This document shows, piece by piece, positions 7,335 to 63,020 of a DNA stretch of 64,000 nt (position 1 is its first letter; every line of letters begins with the position of its first letter). The DNA is from Prosopocoilus inquinatus (taxonomy: Eukaryota > Arthropoda > Insecta > Coleoptera > Lucanidae): assembly GCA_036172665.1 (NCBI GenBank), contig JAYKNF010000016.1, forward strand, positions 496,001-560,000, given 5' to 3'. A program made the translations under genes and the position numbers. Under the pieces are notes generated by a model. That model saw nothing but the letters and a program-made list of their open reading frames with translations. It was not told the origin of the DNA and ran no database searches.

Positions 7335-8954
7335 TTAAGAGGAATCCTTGCGAAGGTACCCCTCTCGGGTTGGTATTTTACTTGCTTGTTAATCCCCAAC
7401 ACTACGACATTTAAGGGGAAATGTTTCGAATTTTATTATTGGTTGGCCTGGGCTGTAGGTGCGCTCCAAACATTTCATTGGTTACCCTTTAGCATGTTGT
7501 TGCATTGTCTTTCGGCGTCGTCGGCTTCTAACGAAATTAAAATTTTTGAAGCAGAAATAAGCTCCACATACAAATTGTAAGAAATAATCTTCGGCAGTAT
7601 CAGCATGTTTACAATATTTTTACAATTACAAATATCTACTGTAAATAATGTGGGCGCAGCAGGCTGGCCGTTCGATGAAATCCGAGTCGTTCATGACGAT
7701 TCGAGAGGCCACTGAGGCGCGTTCAGAAACTGCATTGCGATTGCACTTTGGGCGTTTAAAATGGAAAGCAAAACACGCAAAATAATTTACATGAGAGAGA
7801 AAGTATATTACCCAGAGCGCGCACTTTCTTATTCCTGAACGGGTCCCAGCACACGATAATTCACGATCCTTGGGAGGGAATTTTAAAATAATAATGATGA
7901 AGACATAACTTGTTTAAGATGAGATGAACAGTTTTAATAAATTAATATAGTTAAATTTTATTATAGAATTTAATTAAATTTTTATTTTTATATACGTCAT
8001 TTATGTGTGAATTAGAATAAAGAATGTTTAATATATTTTGTAGGAAAATGTTCACGAATTCCAACTCTAAAGTACAGTACCCGAAAAAAGGAATGTCTCC
8101 TCCATAAAATGCTTACAGCAAGCCAAGACAAGCATTGCGAGCAGGTAATCCTGCTTGCGAAATCTGCCTGAGATAAATTCGAAACGTGCGACTGCTAAAT
8201 TCTGTAAATATAATTATACAACAAAGTGTTATTTGTTTGGTAAAGTCATACATTTTTTGCTATGCAATACATGAACAATAAAAGTAAATTTTTATTTTTT
8301 TTTATAAAATTATAAAAATTCTCATATGGTAATTAATTATTAATTAAAAAAATTATTTCAATATTTGAGTATTAGAATTCTGCAAAGATTTATTTCGGCC
8401 TTTAACTTGTGTTTAAGCAGTAATATTCATTTAATATTTTATTGTTATTCGTTTTATTTTTAAATTGTAAAGGTTCAGTGTTCATTTCAAATATAAACTC
8501 TTTTGGATTGTGTCATAGTTCGTTTTATGAATTTTATTTTGCCAGGACCAAATGAAATATCGATTTAAATTATTTTAAATTAGGAATACACAAAATTAAA
8601 TAGAATAAGTTGATGTGGCATCATCGATAATTTTTAAAATCAATAATACAATTTTTCTCTGGAATCCTGTACTGTAGCTGTTTCTGATTACGGCCATCAT
8701 GCGTATTTATATTTTTATCTTGGAATTAAAAACGAAAATTGTGATTCGATAAAATTGTTACAATACAACGTTTTGTTTTATAATTATATTTACGGTAGCT
8801 GGCAGTCTAACGTTTCGAATATCTCTCAGACACATTTCGCAAGCGGGATTACCTGCTCGCAATGCTTGGCCGCCTCTCTGTAATGTGGGTCTCGACAGCT
8901 TAGCCCAAACATTTGCATTTTATGGGGAAGACATTCCTTTTTTCGGGCACCGTA

Positions 8955-9100
8955 CAGGGTCACTACGAGAGAATTCCTACCTCCTTTTACTTTGATTTTA
9001 GAAAAAAAAAAGATAAAAGAAGTCGTACAATTTATTTCAGTACTGCTATAGACATTCACAAAAAACAATTGAGTGTCGGACACTCAAAAAAATAAACGAA
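8955..9100 (-). repeat. Degenerate copy of the small GGGTGTTCC element
   Basis: Starts CAGGGTCACTACG and tracks the better preserved copy at 56170-56359, losing similarity toward its far end. It lies inside TTAA element copy A at the position where copy B carries the intact version, so it predates the split of the two copies. Confidence 0.5.
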
Positions 9101-9475
9101 GTTTTGATTTTAAATAAAATAACATTGAATAAAATTTTACCATTAACATATTAAATCGATTTAGATATTTTCTAAAAATTAACGTTTAAGCTAGAAACAA
9201 CAAATAATTCGGAAAAATTGAACTTTAAAAAATAAATGAAAATTTAACGTAAAACATATTTAAAGCGTTCTCAATTTTTTTTTACGCAAAATGTAAAAGT
9301 TTTTAAGATATTTTGAATCATATCTCTTGTATAAATGGGAGTTTTCTACATCTAAAATTCAAAAATAAAATAAATTAAATAGGAATTATTTTATAGACAC
9401 CTTTTACATTATTAGTTTTATTATATACGTAGTTCCAGTAGAACTTAATTTAAAATCGAAAATCTTAATAATATA

Positions 9476-9657
9476 TAGGGTGTTCCATTAAAAAAAAACT
9501 TAGTTCATATCTCGTTTATCCGACAACAAATTGTTTTTCTGTGAGCACACGGAGAAACTTTGAATTAGTCCCTACAAGGTTTGTATTAAACATTTTTTCT
9601 TGAAATCAAAAATAAAGTAGTTAAGGGGGGTAGGAATTCTCGCGTAATCACCCTGTA
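9476..9657 (+). repeat. Small MITE-like element with GGGTG ends
   Basis: Begins AGGGTGTTCCATT and ends CACCCTG followed by TA, so the termini are short inverted repeats. It is about 180 bp and non-coding. The matching copy in the duplicate element lies at 56937-57115 in the same position, and 56170-56359 is a copy in opposite orientation. Confidence 0.55.
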
Positions 9658-10481
9658 CATGCGATCAACTCCTTTATTATAAAGAACTACGGTTGAATTC
9701 TTGGCTTCCGGTTAGAACCACATGTCTCGGATTTCTTCTAGAAGAACTATATTAATTAGCACTTGGTTATTCTATTGACTCTAATTATTGTTAATTTTGG
9801 AGTCTCGATTTCAACGCAAAAATATCTTTATAGAAGTAATGTCAAATTACTAACAATATTGAACTTGAATTTTTTTTCCGAAAATATATTCAATTGCTAG
9901 TATTATTTATTGTCCTCATTAACAACGCATATTTTTAATTTAATATTTTTTTCTAAGTTTTAATTAGTAATTTTTGTAGAAACATAATTAGTGTTACAGC
10001 TTATTTACATGAAGACATATTCATTCATAACAAAAACTTTTACATAATTAAATTTTATTAACACATTAATAAAACTCCACTTAGAAAAATTTAGTAACGG
10101 AGTTCGAAATTTATTGACAAACATTTAAATATTTTGTAATTAATTTAAAAATATTTTCTTCTATTATTATATTCTCGTTACTGTCATGTTACAAATGTTT
10201 GCAACGCAAACATTTCTAACATTCATACTTCCGACAAACATTTCAATTTTATAGTATGTACAAGTGTAATTTCAATTTTTCGTTTCTTTTGCCTATATCT
10301 ATGTTAAAATTACAATTCACGTAAATAAATGATTCAAAATGCTTTCGAAGTATTTTTCAAACATCGACAATATTCGGTCACTCTCGGCTCGGATACGACC
10401 TGCCACCAGCCTGTCACAAGCTAATTTTTGTTTCCAGCCGCAATATTCTCTTAAGGCTGTTTGCTCGGCCCCAAAATCGTT

Positions 10482-14835: not shown

Positions 14836-15177
14836 TATACTTTGGTATATTTGCCTGGACTTTTCCCGATCATTCTCTTATAAATGCGGTGGTGATATTG
14901 CTCACTGAAATTTTAAGAAAGGCTCGCAGCGTGGCATTTCACTTCGTAGCTATTTTTCAAAGAGAAGTTAACTCTTTTTCCACCAACAAATTTTGAAACA
15001 ATTGAAATGTACGTCTCTGCTGCATTAATGTTCATATTTAAAAGTAAACTGTGCATTATGCGTCAAATGATTGCAGCAAGCAATAATATCATGAAGTCAT
15101 CCACATTCTACTAAGTCTGGAACTAAATTAATTTCAGAAAAATTTTGTGCAAATCGTTTTTGATTGCAGTGAGAACC

Positions 15178-15242
15178 TCGAGCAGCCTCTGGACAGCTGT
15201 TTCAGCCCTGCTTGGGGCTTCTTCAGCAGAAACGTAGCTCGA
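15178..15242 (-). ncRNA. Type I hammerhead ribozyme, array unit 1
   Basis: Read on the minus strand: outer stem I UCGAGC/GCUCGA, inner stem I UUUCUG/CAGAGG, core CUGAAGA, stem II AGCCC/GGGCU with loop CAAGCA, core GAAA, then the self-complementary stem III ACAGCUGU and cleavage after GUC (between 15192 and 15191). All conserved core bases of the hammerhead are present. Activity is inferred from the fold. Confidence 0.85.
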
Positions 15243-15489
15243 CATTCCCACTGCAGACCAAAAACGACTTGCCCAATTTATTCGCAAATGCGATGTAAGA
15301 ATGATGAACATATAAAATAGCGACATCTTACTATCGCTTTTTGACCTAACATTGCAGTAGGATAGACAAATTGAAGCGGGATTTGCTCCTAATGAGTCCC
15401 CCATGCAAGGCGGCCATGCTTGCTGTCAAAGCATAATGAAAGATTTTAGAAAAATTTTGTGCAAATCGTTTTTGATTGCAGTGAGAACC

Positions 15490-15554
15490 TCGAGCAGCCT
15501 CTGGACAGCTGTTTCAGCCCTGCTTGGGGCTTCTTCAGCAGAAACGTAGCTCGA
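15490..15554 (-). ncRNA. Type I hammerhead ribozyme, array unit 2
   Basis: Identical 65-nt motif exactly 312 bp from unit 1. Transcription through units 1 and 2 and cutting at both sites would release a 312-nt RNA. Confidence 0.85.
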
Positions 15555-15801
15555 CATTCCCACTGCAGACCAAAAACGACTTGCCCAATTTATTCGCAAA
15601 TGCGATGTAAGAATGATGAACATATAAAATAGCGACATCTTACTATCGCTTTTTGACCTAACATTGCAGTAGGATAGACAAATTGAAGCGGGATTTGCTC
15701 CTAATGAGTCCCCCATGCAAGGCGGCCATGCTTGCTGTCAAAGCATAATGAAAGATTTTAGAAAAATTTTGTGCAAATCGTTTTTGATTGCAGTGAGAAC
15801 C

Positions 15802-15866
15802 TCGAGCAGCCTCTGGACAGCTGTTTCAGCCCTGCTTGGGGCTTCTTCAGCAGAAACGTAGCTCGA
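15802..15866 (-). ncRNA. Type I hammerhead ribozyme, array unit 3
   Basis: Same 65-nt motif, again at 312-bp spacing; core, stem II and GUC triplet all intact. Confidence 0.85.
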
Positions 15867-16113
15867 CATTCCCACTGCAGACCAAAAACGACTTGCCCAA
15901 TTTATTCGCAAATGCGATGTAAGAATGATGAACATATAAAATAGCGACATCTTACTATCGCTTTTTGACCTAACATTGCAGTAGGATAGACAAATTGAAG
16001 CGGGATTTGCTCCTAATGAGTCCCCCATGCAAGGCGGCCATGCTTGCTGTCAAAGCATAATGAAAGATTTTAGAAAAATTTTGTGCAAATCGTTTTTGAT
16101 TGCAGTGAGAACC

Positions 16114-16178
16114 TCGAGCAGCCTCTGGACAGCTGTTTCAGCCCTGCTTGGGGCTTCTTCAGCAGAAACGTAGCTCGA
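16114..16178 (-). ncRNA. Type I hammerhead ribozyme, array unit 4
   Basis: Same motif and spacing; no substitution found relative to unit 3. Confidence 0.85.
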
Positions 16179-16425
16179 CATTCCCACTGCAGACCAAAAA
16201 CGACTTGCCCAATTTATTCGCAAATGCGATGTAAGAATGATGAACATATAAAATAGCGACATCTTACTATCGCTTTTTGACCTAACATTGCAGTAGGATA
16301 GACAAATTGAAGCGGGATTTGCTCCTAATGAGTCCCCCATGCAAGGCGGCCATGCTTGCTGTCAAAGCATAATGAAAGATTTTAGAAAAATTTTGTGCAA
16401 ATCGTTTTTGATTGCAGTGAGAACC

Positions 16426-16490
16426 TCGAGCAGCCTCTGGACAGCTGTTTCAGCCCTGCTTGGGGCTTCTTCAGCAGAAACGTAGCTCGA
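16426..16490 (-). ncRNA. Type I hammerhead ribozyme, array unit 5
   Basis: Last minus-strand motif before the palindromic junction. Because this unit folds back at 16655, its downstream neighbour is a plus-strand unit. Confidence 0.85.
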
Positions 16491-16837
16491 CATTCCCACT
16501 GCAGACCAAAAACGACTTGCCCAATTTATTCGCAAATGCGATGTAAGAATGATGAACATATAAAATAGCGACATCTTACTATCGCTTTTTGACCTAACAT
16601 TGCAGTAGGATAGACAAATTGAAGCGGGATTTGCTCCTAATGAGTCCCCCATGCAAGGCATGGGGGACTCATTAGGAGCAAATGCAAGGCATGGGGGATC
16701 CCGCTTCAATTTGTCTATCCTACTGCAATGTTAGGTCAAAAAGCGATAGTAAGATGTCGCTATTTTATATGTTCATCATTCTTACATCGCATTTGCGAAT
16801 AAATTGGGCAAGTCGTTTTTGGTCTGCAGTGGGAATG

Positions 16838-16902
16838 TCGAGCTACGTTTCTGCTGAAGAAGCCCCAAGCAGGGCTGAAACAGCTGTCCAGAGGCTGCTC
16901 GA
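16838..16902 (+). ncRNA. Type I hammerhead ribozyme, array unit 6
   Basis: First plus-strand motif. CUGAAGA is at 16854-16860, stem II strands at 16861-16865 and 16872-16876, and the GUC triplet at 16886-16888 with predicted cleavage after 16888. Confidence 0.85.
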
Positions 16903-17149
16903 GGTTCTCACTGCAATCAAAAACGATTTGCACAAAATTTTTCTAAAATCTTTCATTATGCTTTGACAGCAAGCATGGCCGCCTTGCATGGGGGACTCAT
17001 TAGGAGCAAATCCCGCTTCAATTTGTCTATCCTACTGCAATGTTAGGTCAAAAAGCGATAGTAAGATGTCGCTATTTTATATGTTCATCATTCTTACATC
17101 GCATTTGCGAATAAATTGGGCAAGTCGTTTTTGGTCTGCAGTGGGAATG

Positions 17150-17214
17150 TCGAGCTACGTTTCTGCTGAAGAAGCCCCAAGCAGGGCTGAAACAGCTGTC
17201 CAGAGGCTGCTCGA
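17150..17214 (+). ncRNA. Type I hammerhead ribozyme, array unit 7
   Basis: Plus-strand motif 312 bp after unit 6; predicted cleavage after 17200. Confidence 0.85.
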
Positions 17215-17461
17215 GGTTCTCACTGCAATCAAAAACGATTTGCACAAAATTTTTCTAAAATCTTTCATTATGCTTTGACAGCAAGCATGGCCGCCTTGCA
17301 TGGGGGACTCATTAGGAGCAAATCCCGCTTCAATTTGTCTATCCTACTGCAATGTTAGGTCAAAAAGCGATAGTAAGATGTCGCTATTTTATATGTTCAT
17401 CATTCTTACATCGCATTTGCGAATAAATTGGGCAAGTCGTTTTTGGTCTGCAGTGGGAATG

Positions 17462-17526
17462 TCGAGCTACGTTTCTGCTGAAGAAGCCCCAAGCAGGGCT
17501 GAAACAGCTGTCCAGAGGCTGCTCGA
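17462..17526 (+). ncRNA. Type I hammerhead ribozyme, array unit 8
   Basis: Plus-strand motif 312 bp after unit 7; predicted cleavage after 17512. The following partial unit stops at 17707, before its ribozyme would begin. Confidence 0.85.
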
Positions 17527-17719
17527 GGTTCTCACTGCAATCAAAAACGATTTGCACAAAATTTTTCTAAAATCTTTCATTATGCTTTGACAGCAAGCAT
17601 GGCCGCCTTGCATGGGGGACTCATTAGGAGCAAATCCCGCTTCAATTTGTCTATCCTACTGCAATGTTAGGTCAAAAAGCGATAGTAAGATGTCGCTATT
17701 TTATATGTAAATTAATTTC

Positions 17720-19163
17720 ATTATCTTTGAACCCGGTGCAAAAATAAACGTCACAATCAGAATGATCGCCGATTACGTGCTTAGGGCAATGAATTATCCT
17801 CCTTTTTTAACGCATTAACTTGCTCTATGAGCGTCGGTACATTAGAGCAGTATTAATTCCTATTCCAATAATCATAAGCTCAATTATTCTGTATAATGTA
17901 TATTTTTTCTTTACGTCCACTTTAAACCGCAATACTTCATTGTGCCTAATTTTAGTGCAGGATCTAGTCTAGTGTAGTCTAGATAAAAAAGCAACCCACG
18001 TAAAATTAAAAAAAAAAAAAAAACAATTTTATAGGGGTAATAATAACGGTAATGAAACAACAAAATGACGTTATTGATTTAGAGAGGAACATGCTATGCG
18101 TTTTTTTTTGTGTCGTTTCAATTCTGATAAACTTTCACTTTCCGACAGACGTAGTTTTATTTTCCGAGTTTTACATAGTTTCTGTGTTAGATCAGGTCGC
18201 CGTTTTTATTTACATCACTTTTACATAAAAAAATTTACTCATCTGAGTGTGCGCTCGACCTTAGAATTTGCAGGAGGCCGCGGGCGGTAGCCATGTGAAT
18301 GAGGCCTTATCGGAATATTCTCTTGTGGGTGTGTCAAACTGACACGTAAACCAATCAAAAATAAAGATCAGTGACAGCAGAGTCATAAATTACAAGGAAA
18401 ATGTTTAGGTGGTAATTCTGTTCTCTGTTCTTTTCGTTTGTGTGTAAAAATGCAGGAACACATGTTGAACGTATGTTTCTTCTAAATATATGCGAAAAAT
18501 AGTGATACGCCCATTTGAAAGAATACGAGTTGTTAACTTTCAATATGCTGAGTCTGCATTCAGGCTCGGTGATCACCTGAACATGGCCAAAAAACGGACA
18601 TTCAATTCCGGCACACATTCAATATGGCCGTCAATTACCGATCAGCTGTTTTGGTGGATAAGTAACAATTAGATTATCTTATCGAATTTCCTCATGTTTC
18701 GACTATTTTGAGCTCACTTGTAATTTTTCTAATAAAACAAGCTTTTGTTTTTTAAAATAAGAAGTATATCTTACGAAATAAATAAGTTTTTCAAGTAGCG
18801 ATATCTGGTAGCATTAGAATGACTGCCCGCCTACTTGGGTTCGGAAAATTGTAGTATGAACTTCAAAGGTGCCGACAGAAGCTGTCCCTACTAATTGATG
18901 TCTATACTGTAACATTTGATATGCATATCAATTGATATGATCTTCAATAATTGCAGATAATTTGTTACGATTTCATAACATTTCACGTTGATTGCCGACC
19001 GCAAATTGAATAGAGATGCATATTAACTCGAGGTCACACTTGAAACGGATTGTAAGTTATTACGAAACAATTTACAAAATACCAATTATGATAGGTCACT
19101 TGAAACGTAGCAATATCAAGTCCATATCAATGTTACAGAATAGACCCCATGATAGCCTACTCA
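17720..19163. other. No gene seen
   Basis: Contains a poly-A tract at about 18008-18022 and several short ORFs without family resemblance. Around 18270-18290 is a small GC-rich patch. Nothing else can be supported. Confidence 0.35.
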
Positions 19164-19171
19164 ATCTGAGA

Positions 19172-20622
19172 CAGGGTTGGAAAGTTTAAAACAAACTGTT
19201 TAAAACGTAGTGTTTAAAACATGTTTAAAACACCGAATTAAAAACATACCATCTGTTTTAAACAAAATGTTTTAAACATGTTTTTTTGATAATGTTTTAT
19301 ATTCATTTTTTTTAATTTTAAGCTAAAATAGAACTCTTTTGATATAAGTGCTTTATTTTTATGTTTTAAACATTTTTTTGTTAATGTTTTAAATTCATTT
19401 TTTTAGTTTTAAGCTAAAAAAGAACACTTTTGATATATGTGTTTTATTTTTGCAACGTAATACTGTGTAACCAGAAGTTAATTGTTTAGGATCTGTATTT
19501 CACTGACAGATTAACTTTAAACTTTAGTTTGTTCTCATATCAATTGTTTTAATAATTGTAGACAAAGCGTGACTGAGCTGATGATGTGATGACTACACTG
19601 TAGCTCTGATTTGAACTAAATTTAAATTGCATTAGATTGATTTTAATCAATTCATTACTTATTACTGATCACTATAATAATAATTATATCGTAAAATTTT
19701 AAAATACTTTTTCAATATTTAACCTTTTATCATTACATTAAGTTTTGAAACACACTGGGTCCTTCGCTTCCCTGTTCATACTATGGGCTATGGGATGAGT
19801 TATTATGTAGCAAACTGGCTTGAATCTGTCAATGTTAATGCAATGTTAGGTCAAAAAGTGATCGTAGGATGTCGCTGTTTAAACTATTTATAACGTTATC
19901 GTTTCATTTGTCTTCATTGAATTTCTACCGTGTGTCCCAAGGCCGTATATTCGCACTTCTAGAATTTTAAGGTTTGTTTAAAATTTGAAAACGATGAATT
20001 AAACAAAAATTTAATTTGAAATTTCAGACATATACCTACTGGACTTTTGGTTTCACCGGAAGTAATATCAACTTTGTTATTTTAAATGGAACATCCTACA
20101 TGTTTTTACATATTTAAAATTTTTGTTTTCCAGTATTGAAAGCAACGTGTCATGTATTTTAGTTCTAATGCGATCAAGTAATTTGAACAAAATACTTCTT
20201 TGGATTGTATTTGATTTTAGTTTTTATTGGGAACGTTTTTCTCAGTATGTTGATACCAAATACTTCATACTTTCTCTGAAAATCATTTAAAACACCGCGA
20301 CCGTAGATCCTAAATAAATCAAGCTCTGCCTTAAATGATTTAAATTATTATCAAAGTACATACATTATTTTTAAAAGGCTACATAATCTAACATTACAAA
20401 CTTTTCAACTTTCTTTTAATTAGAGATCGAATTTTAATAAATTCTTCTTTTTACACACATATCAAATATTAATAATAATATATATCTTTTTATGTAAGCA
20501 GTAAGGGCAATTTAAACTTTTAAAAGTTTGTTTTAAACAACATTTTTTTTTTCTTTAAAACGTTTAATTCAGGGTCAATTTTAAACATGTTTTAAACAAA
20601 AAACAGTTTTTTTCCAACCCTG
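19172..20622. mobile_element. Non-autonomous hAT element with TTTAAAC subterminal repeats
   Basis: The termini are CAGGGTTGGAAA and TTTCCAACCCTG, flanked by a perfect 8-bp duplication ATCTGAGA (19164-19171 and 20623-20630), the signature of hAT transposition. Both subterminal regions hold clusters of GTTTAAAAC or GTTTTAAAC words, on the left about 19185-19280 and on the right about 20510-20600, resembling the repeated transposase-binding motifs of hAT ends. No transposase is present. It contains an old retrozyme fragment. Confidence 0.85.
19797..19885 (+). repeat. Retrozyme relic inside the hAT element
   Basis: Matches the non-ribozyme half of the 312-bp unit (TATGTAGCAAAC and GTTAGGTCAAAAAG motifs) with many differences and an internal deletion. 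No ribozyme core remains. Confidence 0.6.
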
Positions 20623-22391: not shown

Positions 22392-22403
22392 TAAGCTTAA
22401 TGC

Positions 22404-22692
22404 TTTTAGAAAAATTTTGTACAAATCGTTTTTGATTGCAGTGAGAACCTCGAGCAGCCTCTGGACAGCTGTTTCAGCCCTGCTTGGGGCTTCTTCAGCA
22501 GAAACGTAGCTCGACATTCCCACTGCAGACCAATTTGTACAAAATTTTTCTAAAATCTTTCATTATGCTTTGACAGCAAGCATGGCCGCCTTGCATGGGG
22601 GACTCATTAGGAGCAAATCCCGCTTCAATTTGTCTATCCTACTGCAATGTTAGGTCAAAAAGCGATAGTAAGATGTCGCTATTTTATATGTT
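22404..22692. mobile_element. Dispersed retrozyme copy, inverted/direct structure
   Basis: Flanked by the 12-bp duplication TAAGCTTAATGC (22392-22403 and 22693-22704). The left part (to about 22532) is minus orientation and includes the ribozyme; the right part is plus orientation and ends GCTATTTTATATGTT. The two parts meet where ATTTGTACAAAATTTTTCT mirrors the left end, giving a stem of about 20 bp. Confidence 0.8.
22450..22514 (-). ncRNA. Type I hammerhead ribozyme, dispersed copy
   Basis: Same 65-nt sequence as the array units with all core bases intact, in the inverted left part of the insertion. Confidence 0.82.
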
Positions 22693-22704
22693 TAAGCTTA
22701 ATGC

Positions 22705-23802: not shown

Positions 23803-24116
23803 GTATATAGATAATAAAAGTGATCACTTAAAAAGACTCAAATTTTTTTGGAGTATATTACTTTTTTTGCGTATCAGTAGTTTGATCACACAGACATGAT
23901 ATTTCTATCAGTGTGCGATATTAGTGTCGGGACGACATTAAAAATATTTCATTTGGTTACTACTTAAATTATTTATTTGTTACGTAACAGTTATTTATGT
24001 TCCAAGAGCACAATGAAGATGTTGCTTTGATCACTAATTAAAAGAATCTGACACACAACACCCTGTGTTAATATTACTCCATTCTAGGCAGTAACCTAAC
24101 ATTATTATTATTAATA

Positions 24117-24275
24117 GATAAATAGCGACATCTTACGATCGCTTTTTGACCTGATATTGCAGTAGGATTGACAAATTGAGCGGGTTTGCTACATAATAAG
24201 TCACCCCATGCAAGGCGGCCATGCTTTGACAGCAATCGTGGCGGCCACTATTACTGTCAAAGCATGGCCGCTATC
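24117..24275 (-). repeat. Old retrozyme relic
   Basis: The minus-orientation non-ribozyme half (AGCGACATCTTACGATCGCT, CTGATATTGCAGTAGG, TGCTACATAATAAGTC) is followed by an inverted repeat of the CATGCTTTGACAGC segment. The ribozyme half is absent. The TGTAGCA/TGCTACA form resembles the old copy at 54.2 kb. Confidence 0.6.
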
Positions 24276-25300: not shown

Positions 25301-25957
25301 ATTATAACTGCAAAATATGAAATAGAAATTCACAGGGGAAGTCCGTAAACTTTTAACGAACTGGTTCCGTGAATGACCCTATATATAAACGTATAATCTC
25401 ATCTTTCACGCACGATTTTTATCTTACTGTGCGTTTCGCTTATCACTTCCAAAACTCGCGTTTACATTATACTTAACGGAGGAAATTTTCGCACTTTTGG
25501 GTAGCATATGATAAGATCGCTCGTTGTCAAGGCAATATTTTAAACGCAGAATTTCTTGAAACAAACGAGTGAAATGCAAAATAAGAGAAAGATGCAATTG
25601 TATGCTCGAAGTGTAATCGACGCGAGACGTACAGTTGTCGGACGCAAACAATTCGACTCTTTTCTGTCAATTTTCACAAATTTGACACAAGAAATACACC
25701 CATCGGAAAAGTCTAGGGATAGTTTTAAAAAATCATAAAAATAAATTGTGGATGGTTTATATCGAACATTTATAGCATTTACACAGGATAACTGGTAAGT
25801 CGAGTATTCCTTTCAAGGTGTGTTAGTAGAGCTCATTTGCAATTGATTTGACCATATTATGCATTATACAAAATGAAATAGTTAATGAGATTTTAATTTT
25901 TGTGTTTTCTTTAGAAATACGCATCCTACTACATTTATTTAACATTACTCAGAAAGT

Positions 25958-26213
25958 TTTAAAAATTTTTGTTGCAAATCGTTTTTGCTGACGAAGCCCC
26001 AAGCAGGGCTGAAACACCTTTACAGAGGCTGCTCGAGGTTTTCACTGCAATCAAAAACGATTTACAACAATTTTTTTTAAACTCATTATGCTTTGACAGC
26101 AAGCATGGCCGCTTTGCATGGGGAACTTATTAGGAGCAATTCCGCTTCAATTTGTCTATCCCACTTCAATGTCAGTCAAAAAGCGATAGTAAGATGTAGC
26201 TGTTTTATCTATT
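25958..26213. mobile_element. Dispersed retrozyme copy in the foldback arm
   Basis: Flanked by the duplicated CATTACTCAGAAAGT (25943-25957 and 26214-26228). The opposite, uninterrupted arm at about 27885-27915 shows the pre-insertion sequence once. About 28 bp at the left are inverted; the rest is plus orientation and ends CTGTTTTATCTATT. The ribozyme (from 25988) has CUGACGA and stem II intact but lacks the upstream stem I strand, and its cleavage triplet is altered, so it is probably dead. Confidence 0.8.
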
Positions 26214-26794
26214 CATTACTCAGAAAGTATGAGAGGTTTTCCTAATGTTTATGTTTTTCTGGTTGGACTAAATAATAGTACGTACTACGAAATAAACATT
26301 AAATAAAAAAACTTTAATAAAATTGAAAATACAATGGGTAAAAAGGCACTTCTCTAAAAAAATTCAACCTACTTGAACATTCATTCTCAGTTATTTCCAA
26401 AATTCGATAATACAATCAACTTGTAAATTATTCTAAAAACTTCTCTGATTTATTGCCTTTCAAACGAAAAATTAGATTTCAGTAAAATTTGTATACATCA
26501 TACTTCCATCAAGTAATAATTATTAAGTGCGGGATAGAATATTTATTGTTTTCAATTTAAGAGGATAACAGCTTCTGTTAAGTATTAGTTTTCTATAAAC
26601 TTCAGTTGAGAAATCCCTCAAAAAGTTCCGTGACATTACTAAATTGGAAATTAAAGAAAATTGTTCCAGCTTAAGCTTAAAATTTGAATTTTTAATTTTT
26701 CGATCGAAGCGATTCTAGGACTTACTCTGTTCAGATATGTATTAATGTTAGATTAACAGTCTCAACGACTTACAAGAAGCAGCAGTAAGACCAC

Positions 26795-31066: not shown

Positions 31067-31152
31067 TTTCGTGTGCGTTTATAAAAATGACAACTGGCTT
31101 GTCACATTATACATAATTGTATAATAATAATGTATAATAATGTAAATTAATC

Positions 31153-31224
31153 TTGAACCGGACAGAAATATGATGGGAACACAATCAATGTTTCGCTATA
31201 GATTTATAACTTCGTCAGGAGCAC
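31153..31224 (-). ncRNA. Relic of a small hammerhead ribozyme
   Basis: Homologous to 60822-60887. CUGACGA (31212-31218, minus strand), a 6-bp stem II with loop AAUC and GAAAC (31190-31194) are preserved. The cleavage triplet reads AUU and stem I no longer pairs, so it is likely inactive. Confidence 0.45.
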
Positions 31225-36960: not shown

Positions 36961-37928
36961 GCGTTTTGGGCACTGATAAAGATGAGAAAATAGCACTCGA
37001 CGTATCAACTTTCATCGCCAACTTAGAAGACTTAGAGCGTTGGCAGACGGAAGATCCGCGATTACAAGAAATACCTAGAGCGCTGAAAGAAGAAATCCTG
37101 AACAACAACCACAGAGATCCCATAAGCGGTCATTTGGGATTAACGAGAACGTTAGACAAAATAAAAAAGAGATTTTTTTGAGAAGGTATGAAGTAGGATA
37201 TTACAAAATTCATAAGAGGTTGTCCAGAATGTCAGATCCGCAAAGGACCAACGAACCAAAAACCCGCAGGATTATTACAACCTATACATGTGAAAGAACC
37301 ATTCTCAATGGTAGGAATTGACTTAGTAGGCCCATTTCCAAGAAGTTCGGCGGGATCTAAATATATAGCGGTAGCCACAGACTACGCTACAAGATGGGCG
37401 GAGGCAAAAGCCTTGCCGAGTGGAAAGGCTGAACCTGTTGCAAAATTTATTGTAGACCAGATAATTTGCCGTCATGGATCTCCGGAAAAAATTTTAAGCG
37501 ACCGAGGAGCGGTTTTTATGTCAAAATTAGTTTCGGAAATTTTGAGGTTGTTAGGCACAGATAGTACATTCACAACAGCTTACAAACCGTCAACTAATGG
37601 GTTGACGAAAAGATTAAATAAAACAATAGTTGATATGATAAGTAAGTATACATCTACCTCACAGAAAGATTGGGATGTTTACCTTCCGCACTGCATATTT
37701 GCTTACAACACAACGAGGCAAGAAGCAATTAAATGTAGCCCATTTTCATTGATGTACGGTCGGGAACCCATACTTCCGACGGATGCTGAGTTATTTCAAT
37801 CAATGCTCACAAATTTCAGTCTCAGAAGTCAGCAAGTAATACAAGAACTACGACAAAATGCTAAAAAGAACATCGAGACAAAGCAAGAAAAAGATAAGAA
37901 AACTTCCAACAAAAACATCGACATCTAA
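36961..37928 (+). pseudogene. Gypsy integrase, catalytic Glu replaced
   Basis: The H2C2 zinc region (SGHLGLTRTLDKIKKRF, then CPECQIRKG) spans about 37125-37245 with a stop at 37179. The core (37290-37928) has GIDLVGPF and SDRGAVF with the two Asp residues, but the third motif reads NGLTKRLNK where a Glu is expected at the Lys. This Glu-to-Lys change alone would abolish strand transfer. Confidence 0.85.
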
Positions 37929-41929: not shown

Positions 41930-42702
41930 TATAAGATAGACAGAAGACTTAAAGATCACATGGTAATATTATCTGTTATAATTGATCAATATCAACTGGA
42001 AATAATAAATTTGATCAATATAATTGTAGCTGCGAAGCAGGGGATTTTTCATCCATTATTTATCACTCCGTCAACGATTCTAGAAAAATTGAAATCTATC
42101 TCTGGTCTCATACCTTCAGGACTTAAATTTCCAATTGACATCTATAACACAAGCTCAGTAGAACCCTTACTAATAGTTAGTTGTTTGGACATTTTTTTCA
42201 AAAATTCTAAATTATGTGGAGTTATTAAATTCCCATTAGTAAGTATTAATTCGTTCACGCTATACAAAATGACACCGATTCCAATTAGGCTACACAAAAG
42301 TGTTTTTGTAGTAATAAATTTGAATTTTGCTTACTTAGCAGTAAATGACTTACATTCAGAGCCCCCGTAACCCTGTGTGCAAAGCGTGCAATGCACGCGG
42401 GCGCCGTGTTCAAGGGGCGGCAATTAGCCTCTTGACCACTCTACATGTTTTGTCAATTTTTTTCGACAAAAAAATTAATCGGAAACAGTTTCTTGTTTGG
42501 TAAAAATAATTCGAAAAAACTATCCAAAAGACTGAACTCTCTTGATAAAGCCGTCAGCAGCACAGCAAAACGTCGACTAAACTAGAACTGTTAATTGCGG
42601 CAATTAAAAGTAGAAAATCTCAATTTTTGTGATTTTCATGTGCTAAATTTTTCATAAAAATAATTTTATAAGGTAAAACCATAAATGATGTAAGCTGTTA
42701 AG

Positions 42703-42991
42703 AAAAATTTTGTGCAAATCGTTTTTGATTGCAGCGAGAACCTCGAGCAGCCTCTGGACAGCTGTTTCAGCCCTGCTTGGGGCTTCTTCAGCAGAGACGT
42801 AGCTCGACATTCTCACTGCAGACCAAAAACGACTTGCCCAATTTATTCGCAAAAACTTTCATTATGCTTTGAAAGCAAGCATGGCCGCCTTGCATAGGAG
42901 ACTTATTAGGAGCAAATCCCGCTTCAATTTGTCTATCCTACTGCTATGTCAGGTCAAAAAGCGATAGTAAGATGTCGCTGTTTTATCTGTT
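42703..42991. mobile_element. Dispersed retrozyme copy inside the hAT element
   Basis: Flanked by the 12-bp duplication TAAGCTGTTAAG (42691-42702 and 42992-43003). The left part, to about 42850, is minus orientation and carries the ribozyme; the right part is plus orientation and ends GCTGTTTTATCTGTT. It is a slightly older subtype than the 15-17 kb array, with several substitutions. Confidence 0.82.
42743..42807 (-). ncRNA. Type I hammerhead ribozyme, dispersed copy
   Basis: Core, stem II and GUC triplet intact. The inner stem I strand reads GUCUCUG rather than GUUUCUG, turning one wobble pair into a Watson-Crick pair. Confidence 0.82.
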
Positions 42992-44500
42992 TAAGCTGTT
43001 AAGGTTTGGTTAGAAAAAAGAAACAAATTAAATTTTACTTTTAAGTTTTTACAAATTTAAATTCGTTTTTGCTTTTGTGATTTTGTTTCTTCTTTTCTAA
43101 TATTTAATAACGAGCGGGCTTCGCAGGGGGGGAAGAGTCTGAACAGCGGCAGAGGCCACTCCAACAGGTTCCGGGTCCGAACCTCTCTATACTCTGTTGC
43201 ACACTCTGTGGCCCCCGCAGATATGTTAAATGCTTTTTTTTTTATTTCTTTTAATTTTTTTTCATAATTTTGATAATTGAATTTGCATGCCCCAACTCAT
43301 TCGGGGGCTCGCGGCAGCTAGAAACTTGAGAAAAAGTGAAGGAAAATGTTTAAGAAAAGCGAAGGAGAATGTTGGCTTTTGTTTTTTTTCCGTTTTTTAA
43401 ATTTTTTATAATCGACTGTTTTTACATGCCACAACTCATCTGTCAGAGGGCGCCAAAATATGGAGTGGCACGTGGGCGGCTTTTAGCCTCGCGGGGGTCC
43501 TGCTTACATTCAAAATTTTTTCATATGAGCACAGAAGAAAAAACAAAAACAATTTTAGTAGAAAACGATATTTATATTTCGCTTAAAGAAAAATTATTAG
43601 TAACAACATCTAAGACTTCTTGTGAAGTTCGCTTACTGACCCCTATAGCAATAATTCCAAATGTATGTGAGAGACATGTAATAAACATTAATCAAACAGA
43701 GTTCATTGAATCAGAAACAACGAATTCATGGATTTTTGTAGCACCAATTTCAGAAATTCTAACCTTATCATGTACTTTTGAAAATCGTACAAATATTTTA
43801 AACCACATAAAGTTAAATGGTACAGGTAAACTTTAGTTAGCCAAACAATACAAGGCATTTTCTGAGAATATAATATTATATGTAGTTAAAACAAAACAAT
43901 TTGAAATGAAATACCAGTTCAGCACATCATGGGATATTAAAGAAAATTTTAATGCAAATACTAGTCTAATTTCACCTTTGACAGATGATTTAAAACAACT
44001 AGATTTAACAGCTTTAGAAGAAATAATGAATAATAAGAAAACTCTCGTATATAAAAGTAAAAAATTAAAGTCGGTTCTTAATGACATTAAACAATTGCAA
44101 GTAGAAACTCATGCCAAACAAAAAGAAACAGGAGAATCGGTAACACTTTATTGTTTAGTAATTGTATTTCTCACAGGAATCGGGATATATACGGGAAAAA
44201 AGTTAAAATGCTTCACATGTAACAAAAAAAAAATAGAGTACCTAAAAGAGAAACTATTGTCGCGAAGACTCTTTCGGGACAGCTGTATATAATTGTTAAC
44301 GAGTCACTTTGCTGAGCTACGGATAATTGGGAAATTGCGGGGAGAGTCGAGGTGGCACCGTCAAAGGAAGGGCTCGGCAAGGTGACTCTACAGCGGTGCT
44401 CAACAAAGCCTAAAAGTGTTGTGGGGAGTTTTTGTCTGAAGAGGACCTTCCTGTTTCGAGACAAGACCGGGATGAGGTAAGAAACTCATTTGTCTATCGG

Positions 44501-54167: not shown

Positions 54168-54435
54168 GTAACATATTATGTAGCAAACTCGCTTCAATTT
54201 GTCTATCCTACTGCAATGTCAGGTCAAAAAGCGATCGTAAGATGTAGCTGTTTAATCTATTCATCATTATTACATCGCAATTGCGAATAAATTGGTCAAG
54301 TCGTTTTTGGTTCGCAATGGAAATTTCGAGCTACGTTTCTGCTTAAGCCCGAAATAGGGCCGAAACAGCTGTATAGAGGCTGCTTGAGATTTTTCACTGC
54401 AATCAAAAACAATTTGCAACAATTTTTTTTTTTAA
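54168..54435 (+). repeat. Old retrozyme monomer with damaged ribozyme
   Basis: A single plus-orientation unit from TATTATGTAGCAAAC to GCAACAATTTTTTT, ending at the same point as the 58.8-kb copy. In the ribozyme (54326-54387) the core CUGANGA is reduced to CTGCTTA while stem II (GCCC/GGGC) and GAAAC survive; the triplet is GUA. A 7-bp ATATTAT at both ends may be a target duplication. Confidence 0.65.
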
Positions 54436-55356
54436 TATTATAGAAAATAATTTTTAAGAGGAATCCTTGCGAAGGTACCCCTCTCGGGTTGGTATTTTAC
54501 TTGCTTGTTAATCCCCAACACTATGACATTTAAGGGGATATGTTTAGAATTTTATGATTGGTTGGCCTTGGCTGAAGGTGCGCTCCAAACATTTCATTGG
54601 TTACCCTTTAGCGTGTTGTTGCATTGTCCGTCGGCGTTGTCGGCTTCTAACGAAATTTAAATTTTTGTAGCAGAAATAAGCTCCACATACAAATTGTAAG
54701 AAATAATCTTCGGCAGTATTAGCATGTTTACAATATTTTTACAATTACAAATATCTACTGTAAATAATGTGGGCGCAGCAGGCTGGCCGTTCGATGAAAT
54801 CCGAGTTGCTGCATCAGGGGGGGTAGATCTTTTATAAGACAAAGTGGTATTAAATTTTACTTCAGTCAGACAAATACAGATGGCAGCCAAAGTCGTGAAT
54901 TTTTGATGTTGGCAGAACCAAGAGTAGGGATTGTACACCTGAGGTTGGTAGAATTGGTAGAAAATATCATGTGAATACCATATCCACCAATCATGTTCGT
55001 CTTTTCGCCATAATGGATTTTTTTGTCATCTTTGAAATGTTCACGAATTTCAACTCGAAAGTACAGTACTAGAAAAAAGTAATTTCTCCTACATAAAATG
55101 CAAATGTTCGGGCTAAGCTGTCAAGACCCACATTACAGGAAGCCAAGTCAAGCATTGCGAACAGGTAATCCCGCTTGCGAAATGTATTTAATCTGCCTGA
55201 GATAAATTCGAAACGTGCTAAATTCTGTAAATATAATTATAAAACAAAGTGTTATTTGTTTGGTAAAGTCATACATTTTTTGCAATGCAATGCAAAATAA
55301 AAGTAAATTTTAAATGACTTTATAAAAATTAAGTTCAACAAAAGGATTCTCGTATG

Positions 55357-55540
55357 ATGAACAGATAAAATAGCGACATCTTACTATCGCTTTTTGACCT
55401 GACGTTGCAGTAGGACAGACAAATTGAAGCGGAATTTGCTCCTAATAAGTCCCCCATGCAAGGCGGCCATGCTTGCTGTCCAGAGGCTGCTTGAGGTTTT
55501 CACTGCAATCAAAAACGATTTGCACAAAATTTTTCTAAAC
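55357..55540. mobile_element. Dispersed retrozyme copy with empty-site control
   Basis: Flanked by the 11-bp duplication ATTCTCGTATG (55346-55356 and 55541-55551). The paralogous position in copy A (about 8318-8328, ATTCTCATATG) has the target once and no insert. The left part is minus orientation starting from the ATAGCGACATC end; the right part is plus orientation from CCAGAGGCTG to AAATTTTTCTAA. The parts meet at GCTGTC, the ribozyme cleavage site. Confidence 0.82.
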
Positions 55541-56169
55541 ATTCTCGTATGGCAATTAATTAACAATTAAAAAAATTATTTCAATATTTGAGAATTAGAA
55601 TTCCTCAAAGATTTATTTCGGCCTTTAACTTGTATTTAAGGAGTAATATTCATTTAATTTATTATTATTCGTTTTCTTTTTAAATTGTAAAGGTTAATTG
55701 TTCATTTCAAATATAAATTGTTTTGAATTGTGTCATAGTTCGTTTTATGAATTTTATTTTGCCAGGAGCAGATGAAATACTGAGTTAAATTATTTGAAAT
55801 TAGGGATACACAAAATTAAATAGAATAAGTTGATGTGACATCATCGATAATTTTTAAAACCTATAATACAAATTTTCTCTGGAATCCTGTACTCTAGCTG
55901 TTTTTGATTATGGCCATCATGCGTATTTATATTTTTATTTTGGAATTAAAAACGAAAAATGTGGTTACATAAAATTGTTACAATGCAACGCTTTGTTTTA
56001 TAATTTACGGAAGCTGGCAGTTTAACGTTTGGAATATCTCTCAGACACATTTCGCAGGTGAGATTACCTGCTCGCAATGCTTGGCCGCCTCTCTGTAATG
56101 TGGGTCTCGACAGCTTAGCCTGAACATTTCCATTTTATGGGGAAGACATTCCTTTTTTCGGGCACTGTA

Positions 56170-56359
56170 CAGGGTGACTACGCGAGAATTCCTACTTCCT
56201 TTAACTCATTTATTTTTGATTTTAGGAAAAAATGCTTAATAAATACAAAAGTTAAAGGGACTAATTCGAAGTTTCACTGTGTGCTCACAGAAAAACAATT
56301 GATGGTCGGATAAACGACAGGTAAACTAAACTTAGGTTTTTTTTTAATGGAACACCCTG
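56170..56359 (-). repeat. Small GGGTGTTCC element, intact copy
   Basis: From CAGGGTGACTACG to AACACCCTG, with TA outside both ends; the inverse of the unit at 9476-9657. Confidence 0.55.
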
Positions 56360-56936: not shown

Positions 56937-57115
56937 AGGGTGTTCCATTAAAAAAAAATTTAGTTCATATCTCGTTTATCCGACCACAAATTGTTTTTCT
57001 GTGAGCACCCAGTGAAACTTTGAATTAGTCCCTATAACTTTTGTATTAAATATTTTTTCTTGAAATCAAAATTAAAGGAGTTAAAGGGGGTAGGAATTCC
57101 CGCGTAATCACCCTG
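56937..57115 (+). repeat. Small GGGTGTTCC element, second copy
   Basis: AGGGTGTTCCATT to ATCACCCTG, orthologous in position to 9476-9657 within the duplicated element. Confidence 0.55.
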
Positions 57116-58180: not shown

Positions 58181-58428
58181 TTAAACTTTAAACGGACGAA
58201 ATTCAAATCAAATGTCGAACCGAATTATGGGAGTCATATCTATCAAGTCGAACAAATTAAAAGCAAAGTATAAACAGATTGTAATTTCTCATTCCATATT
58301 ATTTTCAAAAGACTTATAAAAATTTTTCATTTACTTTTAGTAAGATGTCGCTATTTTATATGTTCATCATTCTTACATCGCATTTGCGAATAAATTGGGC
58401 AAGTCGTTTTTGGTCTGCAGTGGGAATG

Positions 58429-58493
58429 TCGAGCTACGTTTCTGCTGAAGAAGCCCCAAGCAGGGCTGAAACAGCTGTCCAGAGGCTGCTCGA
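58429..58493 (+). ncRNA. Type I hammerhead ribozyme
   Basis: Identical to the array consensus; predicted cleavage after GUC at 58479. Confidence 0.83.
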
Positions 58494-58740
58494 GGTTCTC
58501 ACTGCAATCAAAAACGATTTGCACAAAATTTTTCTAAAATCTTTCATTATGCTTTGACAGCAAGCATGGCCGCCTTGCATGGGGGACTCATTAGGAGCAA
58601 ATCCCGCTTCAATTTGTCTATCCTACTGCAATGTTAGGTCAAAAAGCGATAGTAAGATGTCGCTATTTTATATGTTCATCATTCTTACATCGCATTTGCG
58701 AATAAATTGGGCAAGTCGTTTGTGGTCTGCAGTGGGAATG

Positions 58741-58805
58741 TCGAGCTACGTTTCTGCTGAAGAAGCCCCAAGCAGGGCTGAAACAGCTGTCCAGAGGCTG
58801 CTCGA
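58741..58805 (+). ncRNA. Type I hammerhead ribozyme
   Basis: Second motif, 312 bp downstream. The unit differs from the array consensus at one base upstream of the ribozyme (TTTGTGG at about 58719-58724) and not inside it. Confidence 0.83.
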
Positions 58806-58849
58806 GGTTCTCACTGCAATCAAAAACGATTTGCACAAAATTTTTCTAA

Positions 58850-58852
<3 letters not shown>

Positions 58853-58882
<30 letters not shown>

Positions 58883-60887: not shown

Positions 60888-61141
60888 AAAAAAATAAACA
60901 AGCAAGTTGTCAAGAGAAACAAGTCGTCAAGAGAAACGAAAAGGTAACATGATGTTAAACTAAAATACGAGTTGTCCCGAATAAAGAAAAAATAACTAGA
61001 ACTAAATTAAAACTATTCTTTTTTTTAGCTGAAATTGTTATGCAAGAACTAGAGAAATCTGTTATTAACTCTTTATCGTTCACTTAACGTTATTTTTTCA
61101 AAAAAATTTGTTGCAAATCGTTTTTGATTGCAGTGAAAAGA

Positions 61142-61206
61142 TCGAGCAGCCTCTGTACAGCTGTTTCAACCCTGCTTGGGGCTTCGTCAGTAGAGATGTA
61201 GCTCGA
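61142..61206 (-). ncRNA. Type I hammerhead ribozyme, older variant
   Basis: CUGACGA core, stem II AGCCC/GGGUU with one wobble, GUA triplet. The base pair next to the cleavage site in stem I is A opposite C, so activity may be reduced. Confidence 0.75.
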
Positions 61207-61704
61207 CATTCCCACTGCAAACAAAAACGACTTGTCCAATTTATTCGCAATTGGGACGTAAGAGTGACGAACAGATGAAACAGCGACATCTTACGATCGC
61301 TTTTTGACCTGACATTGCAGTAGGATAGAGAAATTGAAGCGGATTTGCTCCTAATAAGTCCCCCTTGCAAGGCGGCCATGCTTGCTGTCAAAGCATAAAG
61401 ACAGTATTAAAAGAAATTTGTGGCAAATCGTTTTTGATTGCAGTGAAAACCTCGAGCAGTCTCTGCACAGCTGTTTCAGCCCTGCTTGCAACAAAATTTT
61501 TTAAAACTTTCATTATGCTTTGACAGCAAGCATGGCCGCCTTGGATGGGGGACTTATTAGGAGCAAATCCGCTTCAATTTGTCTATCTTACTGCAATGTC
61601 AGGTCAAAAAGCGAGCGTAAGATGTCGCTGTTTTATCTGTTCATCACTCTTACATCGCAATTGTGAATAAATTGTACAAGTCGTTTTTCCTTGCAGTGGG
61701 AATG

Positions 61705-61769
61705 TCGAGCTACGTCTCTGCTGACGAAGCCCCAAGCAGGGCTGAAACAGCTGTACAGAGACTGCTCGA
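61705..61769 (+). ncRNA. Type I hammerhead ribozyme, older variant
   Basis: CUGACGA core and GUA triplet. The inner stem I is UCUCUG/CAGAGA, fully Watson-Crick, where the young units have wobble pairs: a compensated change. Confidence 0.8.
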
Positions 61770-62015
61770 GGTTTTCACTGCAATCAAAAACGATTTGCAA
61801 CAAATTTCTTTTAAAACTGTCATTATGCTTTGACAGCAAGCATGGCCGCCTTGCATGGGGGACTTATTAGTAGCAAATCCGCTTCAATTTATCTACCCTA
61901 CTGCAATGTTAAGTCAAAAAGCAAGTGTAAGATGTCGCTGTTTTATCTGTTCATCATTCTTACATCGCAATTGCGAATAAATTGGGCAAGTCGTTTTTGG
62001 TCTGCAGTGGGAATG

Positions 62016-62080
62016 TCGAGCTACGTCTCTGCTGAAGAAGCCCCAAGCAGGGCTGAAACAGCTGTCCAGAGGCTGCTCGA
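62016..62080 (+). ncRNA. Type I hammerhead ribozyme, intermediate variant
   Basis: CUGAAGA core with GUC triplet as in the young array, but upstream stem I UCUCUG as in the older copies. It lies 311 bp from the previous motif. Confidence 0.82.
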
Positions 62081-62322
62081 GGTTTTCACTGCAATCAAGG
62101 ACGATTTGCACAAAATTTTTCTAAAACTTTCATTATGCTTTGCCAGCAAGCATGGCCGCCTTGCATGGGGGACTCATTAGGAGCAAATCCCGCTTCAATT
62201 TGTCTATCCTACTGCAATGTCAGGTCAAAAAGCGATAGTAAGATGTCGCTATTTTATCTGTTCATCATTCTTACATCGCAATTGCGAATAAATTGGCCAA
62301 GTCGTTTTTGGTCTGCAGTGGG

Positions 62323-63020
62323 ACCAGTGGGAAATAACAAAGTCGGAACTCATTTGCTACATTTCCGATCGTCATTTGTTTTCGTTTTTATAAAACTCTG
62401 TCGGTTCAGATAAATTCCTAAAACGTTGATGTATAACATTTTTTGATATGTTTGATAATAAAGTACGTAGGTATTCATAATATAAGTAAAAATCCTGTAC
62501 ATCAAACGGTTGCTTCTGATACAATGAGCGCGAGGGTGCCTCTGGCATATAAAACGTTCAGCGGCGACGTTGAAAACTACGCTGCTGGTTTATTTATCTT
62601 TATATTGGTTTTTACCAGATATCCTAGGAATGCCCGAGCTTTATTTATCGCTAATTATCGTAATTATGGCACCTTACACTTCCAGTCATACTAAACCATA
62701 ATCACAAAATTGATCACTGTTCAAAATTTCACTTAGTTATGTCATCTAATTGCAGTTATTGATTTTTTTCCAGAAACTAGCCGTTTTTACCCACTGCGCG
62801 GCGCATCCAAACATTTAAAAATATACAGGGTGTTCCATTAAAAAAAAAAAAAAAAACTAGTTTCTACGAACCGCCATTTTTCTGATCACTCTGTATAGTT
62901 CAAAATAATTTTACAATATACTGCGTGTTGTCTAGTATCAAATTCTTTTTCGATTTTTTTCCTAATTTTTTTCCCATAGGCCTCACAGAAGAAATACGCA
63001 CCGTTGGGCCAGCCTATACA
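62323..63020. other. No gene; one ACAGGGTGTTCC terminus
   Basis: 62825-62858 reads ACAGGGTGTTCCATT followed by a run of A, the same terminus as the small elements at 9.5 and 57 kb. No ORF with family features. Confidence 0.4.

What the first reader, a model, noticed from the sequence alone, without database searches (positions are those of the whole stretch)
15136..17707. 312-bp tandem repeat is a hammerhead-ribozyme retrozyme
Every complete unit holds a 65-nt sequence satisfying the type I hammerhead: CUGANGA, GAAA, A-U next to stem III, GUC triplet, 5-bp stem II and 12 bp of stem I split by an internal loop (UACG opposite CU) suited to tertiary contact with loop II. Head-to-tail motifs exactly 312 bp apart would release unit-length RNA that could be circularised. 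Metazoan retrozymes are established as small hammerhead retroelements making circular RNA; this particular family and its arrangement may be undescribed.
Basis: partly seen in the sequence, partly recalled or inferred. Interest (0 to 1): 0.92.

Follow-up and report, generated by a model that had tools for sequence, protein, structure and literature searches.

The report
Head-to-head insect retrozyme with hammerhead ribozyme
A small insect mobile element, whose 312-letter repeats each carry a predicted self-cutting RNA, is inserted as mirror-image arrays, a pattern suggesting that its RNA is copied into DNA from both sides of the chromosome break at once.

Summary
The 312-bp unit carries a type I hammerhead: a full descriptor matches 14 places in the window, all copies of this unit, and none in 60 Markov 64-kb sequences. 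Rfam support is weak: Hammerhead_1 at full length, 23.8 bits against a cut-off of 34. Self-cleavage and circular RNA are untested.

About 4.9 units on the - strand abut about 3.3 on the + strand, head-to-head, between 13-bp target-site duplications (TSDs). Of ten places holding the unit, six are head-to-head; five of those six have exact 11-15 bp TSDs, one with a paralogous empty site. Outer ends recur at unit 54-60 (6 of 6, "A") and 195-200 (5 of 6, "B"), in the two longest unpaired runs of the predicted circle.

Best explanation: a metazoan non-LTR retrozyme whose circular or multimeric RNA was primed by both 3' overhangs of the target. It is a new family of a known kind. Integration primed from both strands would be a new variant, though Penelope-like elements make similar inverted inserts.

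The parts
15124..15136 (.). Left TSD of insertion 1 (TAAATTAATTTCA)
   Evidence: Exact 13-bp match to 17708-17720
15137..16659 (-). Left arm of insertion 1: about 4.9 units, ribozyme on the - strand, outer end A at unit 55
16660..17707 (+). Right arm of insertion 1: about 3.3 units, ribozyme on the + strand, outer end B at unit 195; holds a 16-bp filler near 16684-16697
17708..17720 (.). Right TSD of insertion 1
16837..16904 (+). One example of the hammerhead with the first pairs of its extended stem I (predicted cut after C16888)
   Evidence: Descriptor hit with core at 16854; structure; Rfam Hammerhead_1 16848-16894
22392..22704 (.). Insertion 2, head-to-head, 289 bp between 12-bp TSDs TAAGCTTAATGC
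25943..26228 (.). Insertion 3, head-to-head, 256 bp between 15-bp TSDs CATTACTCAGAAAGT
42691..43003 (.). Insertion 4, head-to-head, 289 bp between 12-bp TSDs TAAGCTGTTAAG
55346..55551 (.). Insertion 5, head-to-head in flipped orientation, 184 bp between 11-bp TSDs ATTCTCGTATG
   Evidence: empty site in the paralogous repeat
8318..8328 (.). Paralogous empty target site of insertion 5 (ATTCTCATATG, one substitution)
61096..62323 (.). Insertion 6, head-to-head, older, units 90-92% alike, no TSD found, right end at unit 258
58338..58852 (+). Copy in one orientation, 1.65 units, ends near A at unit 61, followed by (AAT)n; no convincing TSD
54175..54427 (+). Old copy in one orientation, ends at unit 54, core of the ribozyme deleted
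24107..24226 (-). Fragment with an end at unit 203 and a rearranged inverted piece beside it
19790..19880 (+). Old fragment of the unit

Best explanation
This is a recently active family of metazoan non-LTR retrozymes in an insect. The array is transcribed and each unit cuts itself with a minimal type I hammerhead (inferred). The unit RNA is closed into a 312-nt circle, or stays a multimer (inferred). An endonuclease of another retroelement makes a staggered cut that leaves 11-15-nt 3' overhangs (inferred from the TSDs). Both overhangs prime reverse transcription on the RNA, at two preferred AU-rich unpaired places near unit 60 (A) and 197 (B). Each cDNA is minus-sense; in each of the six insertions at least one runs through the predicted cleavage site, and in two of six an arm is longer than one unit. 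The two cDNAs, attached to opposite target strands, join at short matches, giving a head-to-head array between TSDs. Shown by sequence: arrangement, TSDs, empty site, recurring ends, copying across the cleavage site. Predicted: the folds. Inferred: self-cleavage, circularity, priming from both strands, and the enzyme.
For: Full hammerhead descriptor at 14 places, all in this unit; 0 in 60 Markov sequences. Hammerhead_1 full-length match. Changes shared by more than one locus in the ribozyme fall at positions that tolerate them: U273C, A282C (N7), C312A (H17). Circle fold -112.1 kcal/mol, z -7.3 against 100 shuffles. Exact TSDs of 13, 12, 15, 12 and 11 bp at 5 of 6 head-to-head copies; 11 bp or more at 0.125% of 4000 random flank pairs. 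Empty site. Outer ends at unit 54-60 in 6 of 6 and 195-200 in 5 of 6, inside the two longest unpaired runs of the minimum-energy circle, 48-69 and 186-210. cDNA crosses 312|1 in 6 of 6. Inner-junction overlaps 2, 1, 2, 2, 6, 3 nt, sum 16, expected about 4, P 0.0005.
Against: Rfam stays below its cut-off. The minimum-energy fold blocks the core and is 6 kcal/mol better than the catalytic fold without tertiary contacts. Insertion 6 has no TSD, ends at unit 258 instead of B, and its units are only 90-92% alike, no more than to other copies, which does not fit one circle. Two copies have one orientation only. With insertion 6 included, clustering of B is much weaker (P 0.002). An uncleaved multimer would leave the same traces as a circle. 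No Pfam GIY-YIG or reverse-transcriptase match came from the ten proteins scanned. No expression data. Several counts rest on six copies in one window.
Confidence: 0.68

Rival explanations
1. Same retrozyme, but the inverted arm comes from self-priming (fold-back) of one cDNA or of an antisense transcript, as proposed for Penelope elements of Adineta vaga.
For: That is the published proposal for head-to-head Penelope inserts with palindromic junctions (PMC3846280). In insertion 1 the two arms meet at unit 93 and 98, nearly a palindrome.
Against: In insertions 2-6 the inner ends lie at different unit positions (243/38, 30/276, 216/61, 77/307, 290/40), not at a fold-back point. A fold-back copy does not by itself explain a second fixed outer end B next to the TSD.
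Confidence: 0.15
2. A short head-to-head retrozyme copy was inserted and later grew to 8.2 units by unequal exchange or slippage, as satellite DNA does.
For: Four of the five TSD-flanked copies are under one unit in total (184-289 bp). Identical units would also follow from recent homogenisation.
Against: Explains array length only, not the head-to-head form, TSDs or ends. Both arms of insertion 1 are multi-unit, and 58338-58852 is identical to the same unit at 514 of 515 positions, so recent copying from one source suffices.
Confidence: 0.1
3. The repeat is a coding or otherwise unrelated satellite and the hammerhead match is chance.
For: The unit is 104 codons long and one frame has a single stop, giving a 103-aa ORF through the ribozyme. 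Rfam is below cut-off.
Against: No relative at E 0.001 in 5.8 billion proteins and no Pfam match to the ORF. Older units are 310-311 bp, which breaks the frame. The descriptor is absent from 60 control sequences.
Confidence: 0.05
4. The head-to-head array is an assembly or sequencing artefact (palindromic reads).
For: Inverted junctions are a known artefact form (recalled).
Against: Left and right flanks are not inverted copies: best scores 20, 32, 23, 23 and 41 against a random-pair mean of 27.6 and maximum of 233. The same form recurs at six places, five with exact TSDs, one with an empty site.
Confidence: 0.02

Closest known systems
Metazoan non-LTR retrozymes (Cervera and de la Pena 2020, PMC7229834; parts 1-4 of 6 of the text read, plus passages)
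   Same: Tandem units of 170-400 nt, low GC, type I hammerhead per unit, TSDs longer than 4 bp, highly self-paired RNA; insects are named among hosts
   Different: No head-to-head arrangement in the parts read; the words 'inverted' and 'head-to-head' do not occur in the main text. Figures and supplement were not seen
Penelope-like elements (PMC3846280; passages and Discussion read; HHRs in PLEs from PMC7229834 and PMC7761336 passages)
   Same: Inserts with an inverted terminal copy head-to-head with the main copy, TSDs of 8-10 bp in the passages seen, an optional extra 'tail' at one of the two 3' ends, type I hammerheads
   Different: They encode reverse transcriptase and GIY-YIG endonuclease; this unit encodes nothing recognised. 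The PLE authors favour self-priming
Satellite DNAs with hammerheads: newt satellite 2 and pDo500 of Dolichopoda cave crickets (PMC2837043, passages; newt from PMC7229834)
   Same: [quoted passage not shown] axolotl and newt also have very short stem III and work as dimers
   Different: Those were described as satellite arrays; here small dispersed copies with TSDs and head-to-head form dominate in the window
L1 twin priming (recalled, no paper opened)
   Same: Two target 3' ends prime on one RNA and give an internal inversion inside TSDs
   Different: Linear polyadenylated template and a single copy; here the template is circular or multimeric, both ends are fixed, and arms can exceed a unit

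Membership tests
Metazoan non-LTR retrozyme | Type I hammerhead with conserved core in each unit | tested here: met
   Descriptor and pairing; Rfam Hammerhead_1 full length but below cut-off
Metazoan non-LTR retrozyme | Tandem units of about 170-400 bp, GC below 45-50% | tested here: met
   312 bp, GC 43%
Metazoan non-LTR retrozyme | TSDs, when present, longer than 4 bp | tested here: met
   11-15 bp at 5 of 6 head-to-head copies
Metazoan non-LTR retrozyme | Highly self-paired RNA | tested here: met
   Circle fold z -7.3, 62% paired
Metazoan non-LTR retrozyme | No PBS, PPT or LTRs | not tested
   Not searched for
Metazoan non-LTR retrozyme | Self-cleavage and circular RNA in tissue | not testable with these tools
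   No bench or RNA-seq data
Metazoan non-LTR retrozyme | Tertiary contact between loop II and the stem I internal loop | not tested
   Loops CAAGCA and UAC/U noted; contacts not modelled
Penelope-like element | Encodes reverse transcriptase (and usually GIY-YIG endonuclease) | tested here: not met
   Unit is 312 bp; its ORF has no Pfam match and no relative
Penelope-like element | Head-to-head inverted copy within one TSD-flanked insert | tested here: met
   5 copies with TSDs; this is likeness of integration, not membership
Plant LTR retrozyme | Type III hammerhead and 4-bp TSD | tested here: not met
   Type I topology; TSDs of 11-15 bp

The most novel reading that the evidence does not exclude
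One ribozyme-made RNA circle is primed at once by both 3' overhangs of a staggered break and copied, at times several turns, from two fixed unpaired sites; the two cDNAs join through short matches, some rooted in the circle's own long stem. Such doubly primed rolling-circle reverse transcription would be an integration route of animal retrozymes, and head-to-head Penelope inserts could be the same process.
Probability: 0.4. Interest if true: 0.82.

Novelty: new variant of a known kind. Interest (0 to 1): 0.62.

Why it matters
How animal retrozymes return to DNA is open: the 2020 paper says only that a primed circRNA, target-primed or otherwise, would be copied into tandem cDNA by a LINE or Penelope enzyme. 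TSD-flanked head-to-head inserts with fixed ends, and cDNA running across the cleavage site, are a footprint that can be counted in genomes and reproduced in vitro. They also tie retrozymes to Penelope-like integration by structure. The largest array is a perfect inverted repeat with arms over 1 kb, so read-through transcripts could form long double-stranded RNA.

Tried and rejected
Coding reading: rejected. DNA transposon: by inspection ends A and B differ in sequence and TSD length varies from 11 to 15 bp. Palindromic-read artefact: flanks are not inverted copies. Other hammerhead candidates: places matching only the loose pattern (26812, 28676, 31165, 36334, 47247 and 60831) fail the full descriptor. 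Rfam miRNA matches around the junction reflect its palindrome.

Relatives elsewhere: none in viral contigs, genome contigs or plasmids. These collections are not insect genomes, so absence says little. No Penelope partner was recognised among ORFs of 70 aa or more, read by eye, and none in ten proteins scanned with Pfam; the window was not scanned in all frames.

Left out of the counts of head-to-head copies: 19790-19880, 24107-24226, 54175-54427 and 58338-58852. The fragment at 24107 has an end at unit 203 and a 6-nt inverted overlap, but it is rearranged and never reaches A. Overlap of 8 nt first noted for insertion 3 contains a mismatch; the strict value 2 is used. The overlaps of insertions 4 and 6 and the plus-side start of insertion 3 came out of the script; those of 1, 2, 5 and the other side of 3 were read, because the exact-match script stopped at private changes or at the filler. 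Outer ends mixed in bases shared with the TSDs and were replaced by the strict ones. A first TSD null included positions inside arrays; one search is cited instead. Complementarity between overhangs and RNA at A and B was looked at by eye: clear only in insertion 3, so not used.

Papers PMC4209133 and PMC5785218 are not held. PMC11722881, which holds both 'retrozyme' and 'inverted repeat', was seen in listings only.

Full report
What is there. The window is insect DNA by its content: a 769-aa ORF at 3045-5354 has Mutator and YqaJ domains, and the best hits among 120 listed of 327 are insect proteins where named, the first from the firefly Aquatica leii at 54% identity. The host may be a beetle, but a transposon protein is a weak marker. 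At 15131-17708 lies a 312-bp repeat, 4.9 copies followed by 3.2. The first part has the ribozyme on the - strand, the second on the + strand; they abut at 16659/16660. Six complete units from both arms were compared and are identical, the reference being one of them. A 16-bp filler near the junction repeats junction sequence.

The ribozyme. In unit coordinates (position 1 is the first base after the predicted cut) the core is CUGAAGA at 278-284, stem II 285-289/296-300 with loop CAAGCA, GAA at 301-303, stem III 304-305/310-311 with loop AGCU, cleavage residue C312, and stem I 1-7/271-277. Beyond a small internal loop the stem runs on for about 40 pairs. A full descriptor finds 14 places in the window, all copies of this unit and 8 of them in the finding itself, and none in 60 first-order Markov sequences of the same length. 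Rfam is weaker support: nothing at the curated score, HH9 at 14.5 bits in a 2.9-kb search, and Hammerhead_1 over its full length at 23.8 bits (cut-off 34, E 0.0003 for 78 bases) in a focused search. Nine other ribozyme copies were compared; three have no change. Changes seen at more than one locus are U273C (4 loci), A282C (3) and C312A (4): a G-U to G-C pair, position N7 and position H17, all tolerated by the motif as recalled. Private changes in 25988, 54320 and 61190 do break pairs or delete the core, and these three are not among the 14.

The circle. Folded as a circle the unit reaches -112.1 kcal/mol, z -7.3 against 100 dinucleotide shuffles; the opposite strand gives z -3.3. In the minimum-energy fold the core is paired in a way that would block the ribozyme, and the catalytic secondary structure is 6 kcal/mol weaker without tertiary contacts. 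That might protect a closed circle or might mean poor activity; only a test can tell.

The insertions. BLAST of the unit against the window shows ten places. Six are head-to-head: 15131-17708, 22404-22692, 25952-26216, 42685-42991, 55354-55539 and 61096-62323. Five of these six have exact TSDs of 13, 12, 15, 12 and 11 bp; the sixth has none (3 bp). At 4000 random flank pairs outside the repeats, 0.125% had a repeat of 11 bp or more. Insertion 5 lies in a repeat whose other copy, around 8172-8480, has the target once, with one substitution. So each of these head-to-head structures most simply entered as one event. Two copies have one orientation and no convincing TSD (58338: 3 bp, 54175: 7 bp), and two are fragments (19790, 24107).

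The ends. Counting only bases outside the TSDs, the outer end of one arm lies at unit 55, 60, 59, 54, 59 and 60, that of the other at 195, 197, 197, 197, 200 and 258 (insertion 5 read in flipped orientation). If ends were uniform and copies independent, so tight a cluster would have a chance of about 2e-8 for A and 3e-7 for the first five of B, but only 0.002 for all six of B. Both places lie in the two longest unpaired runs of the minimum-energy circle, 48-69 and 186-210; 1.6% of 10-nt windows are as unpaired as 57-66 and 9.3% as unpaired as 193-202. Both runs are AU-rich, which may be the real cause.

Reading the anatomy. In each of the six both outer ends are 3' ends of the ribozyme strand. 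This is what results if each of two 3' overhangs of a staggered break primes a minus-sense cDNA on the RNA. The cDNAs sit on opposite target strands and must join. Strict overlaps at the six inner junctions are 2, 1, 2, 2, 6 and 3 nt, sum 16, expected about 4, P 0.0005. In insertions 2 and 4 the inner ends (unit 243/38 and 216/61) also lie close to partners across the long stem. In all six, cDNA runs across the predicted cleavage site, so the template was closed or uncut there. In insertion 2 both arms share a change at unit 43 or nearby (GCACAAAA to GTACAAAA) not seen in the other copies aligned, as expected if one RNA served both. Insertions 1 and 6 have arms longer than a unit, so the RNA was copied around more than once or was a multimer. 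Against one circle, insertion 6 has units only 90-92% alike, no more than to other copies; template switching, a mixed multimer or later conversion would be needed there.

What is known. Metazoan non-LTR retrozymes are defined by type I hammerheads in tandem repeats of low GC, with TSDs longer than 4 bp and circRNA of 170-400 nt; insects are named among hosts (PMC7229834, parts 1-4 of 6). Nematostella repeats have 15-bp TSDs (PMC4918200, passages). The integration step is left open there, target priming being one possibility. Inverted terminal copies inside TSD-flanked inserts, mostly head-to-head, are described for Penelope elements, where self-priming on antisense RNA was proposed (PMC3846280, passages and Discussion). 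In the held library no paper has both 'retrozyme' and 'twin priming', both 'Penelope' and 'twin-priming', or 'Penelope', 'head-to-head' and 'hammerhead'. The library lacks most subscription journals and the 2020 supplement was not read, so priority is not established.

Verdict. The new part is the arrangement: head-to-head insertions with TSDs and two recurring ends, best explained by reverse transcription primed from both target strands on a circular or multimeric retrozyme RNA. The enzyme is unknown; a Penelope-like element is the best candidate by likeness of integration only.

Noticed in passing
7335-10454 and 54454-57628: Two copies of a dispersed repeat about 3 kb long, about 88-96% alike over most aligned pieces; one copy carries retrozyme insertion 5, the other the empty site. 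Its nature was not determined.
   Followed up: partly
3045-5354 (-): 769-aa ORF with Mutator-like transposase and YqaJ domains, nearest to firefly proteins.
   Followed up: partly
37197-37928, 46607-47359: ORFs with retroviral-type integrase domains, remnants of two LTR-type elements.
   Followed up: no
32500-33690, 40590-41654, 60082-60510: ORFs with DDE transposase matches; the first is below Pfam's cut-off.
   Followed up: no
31136-31221 and 60802-60885: Two 85%-alike pieces that contain CTGACGA and GAAA in hammerhead order but fail the full hammerhead descriptor.
   Followed up: partly
58850-58908: An (AAT)n run starts directly at the A end of the single-orientation retrozyme copy.
   Followed up: no
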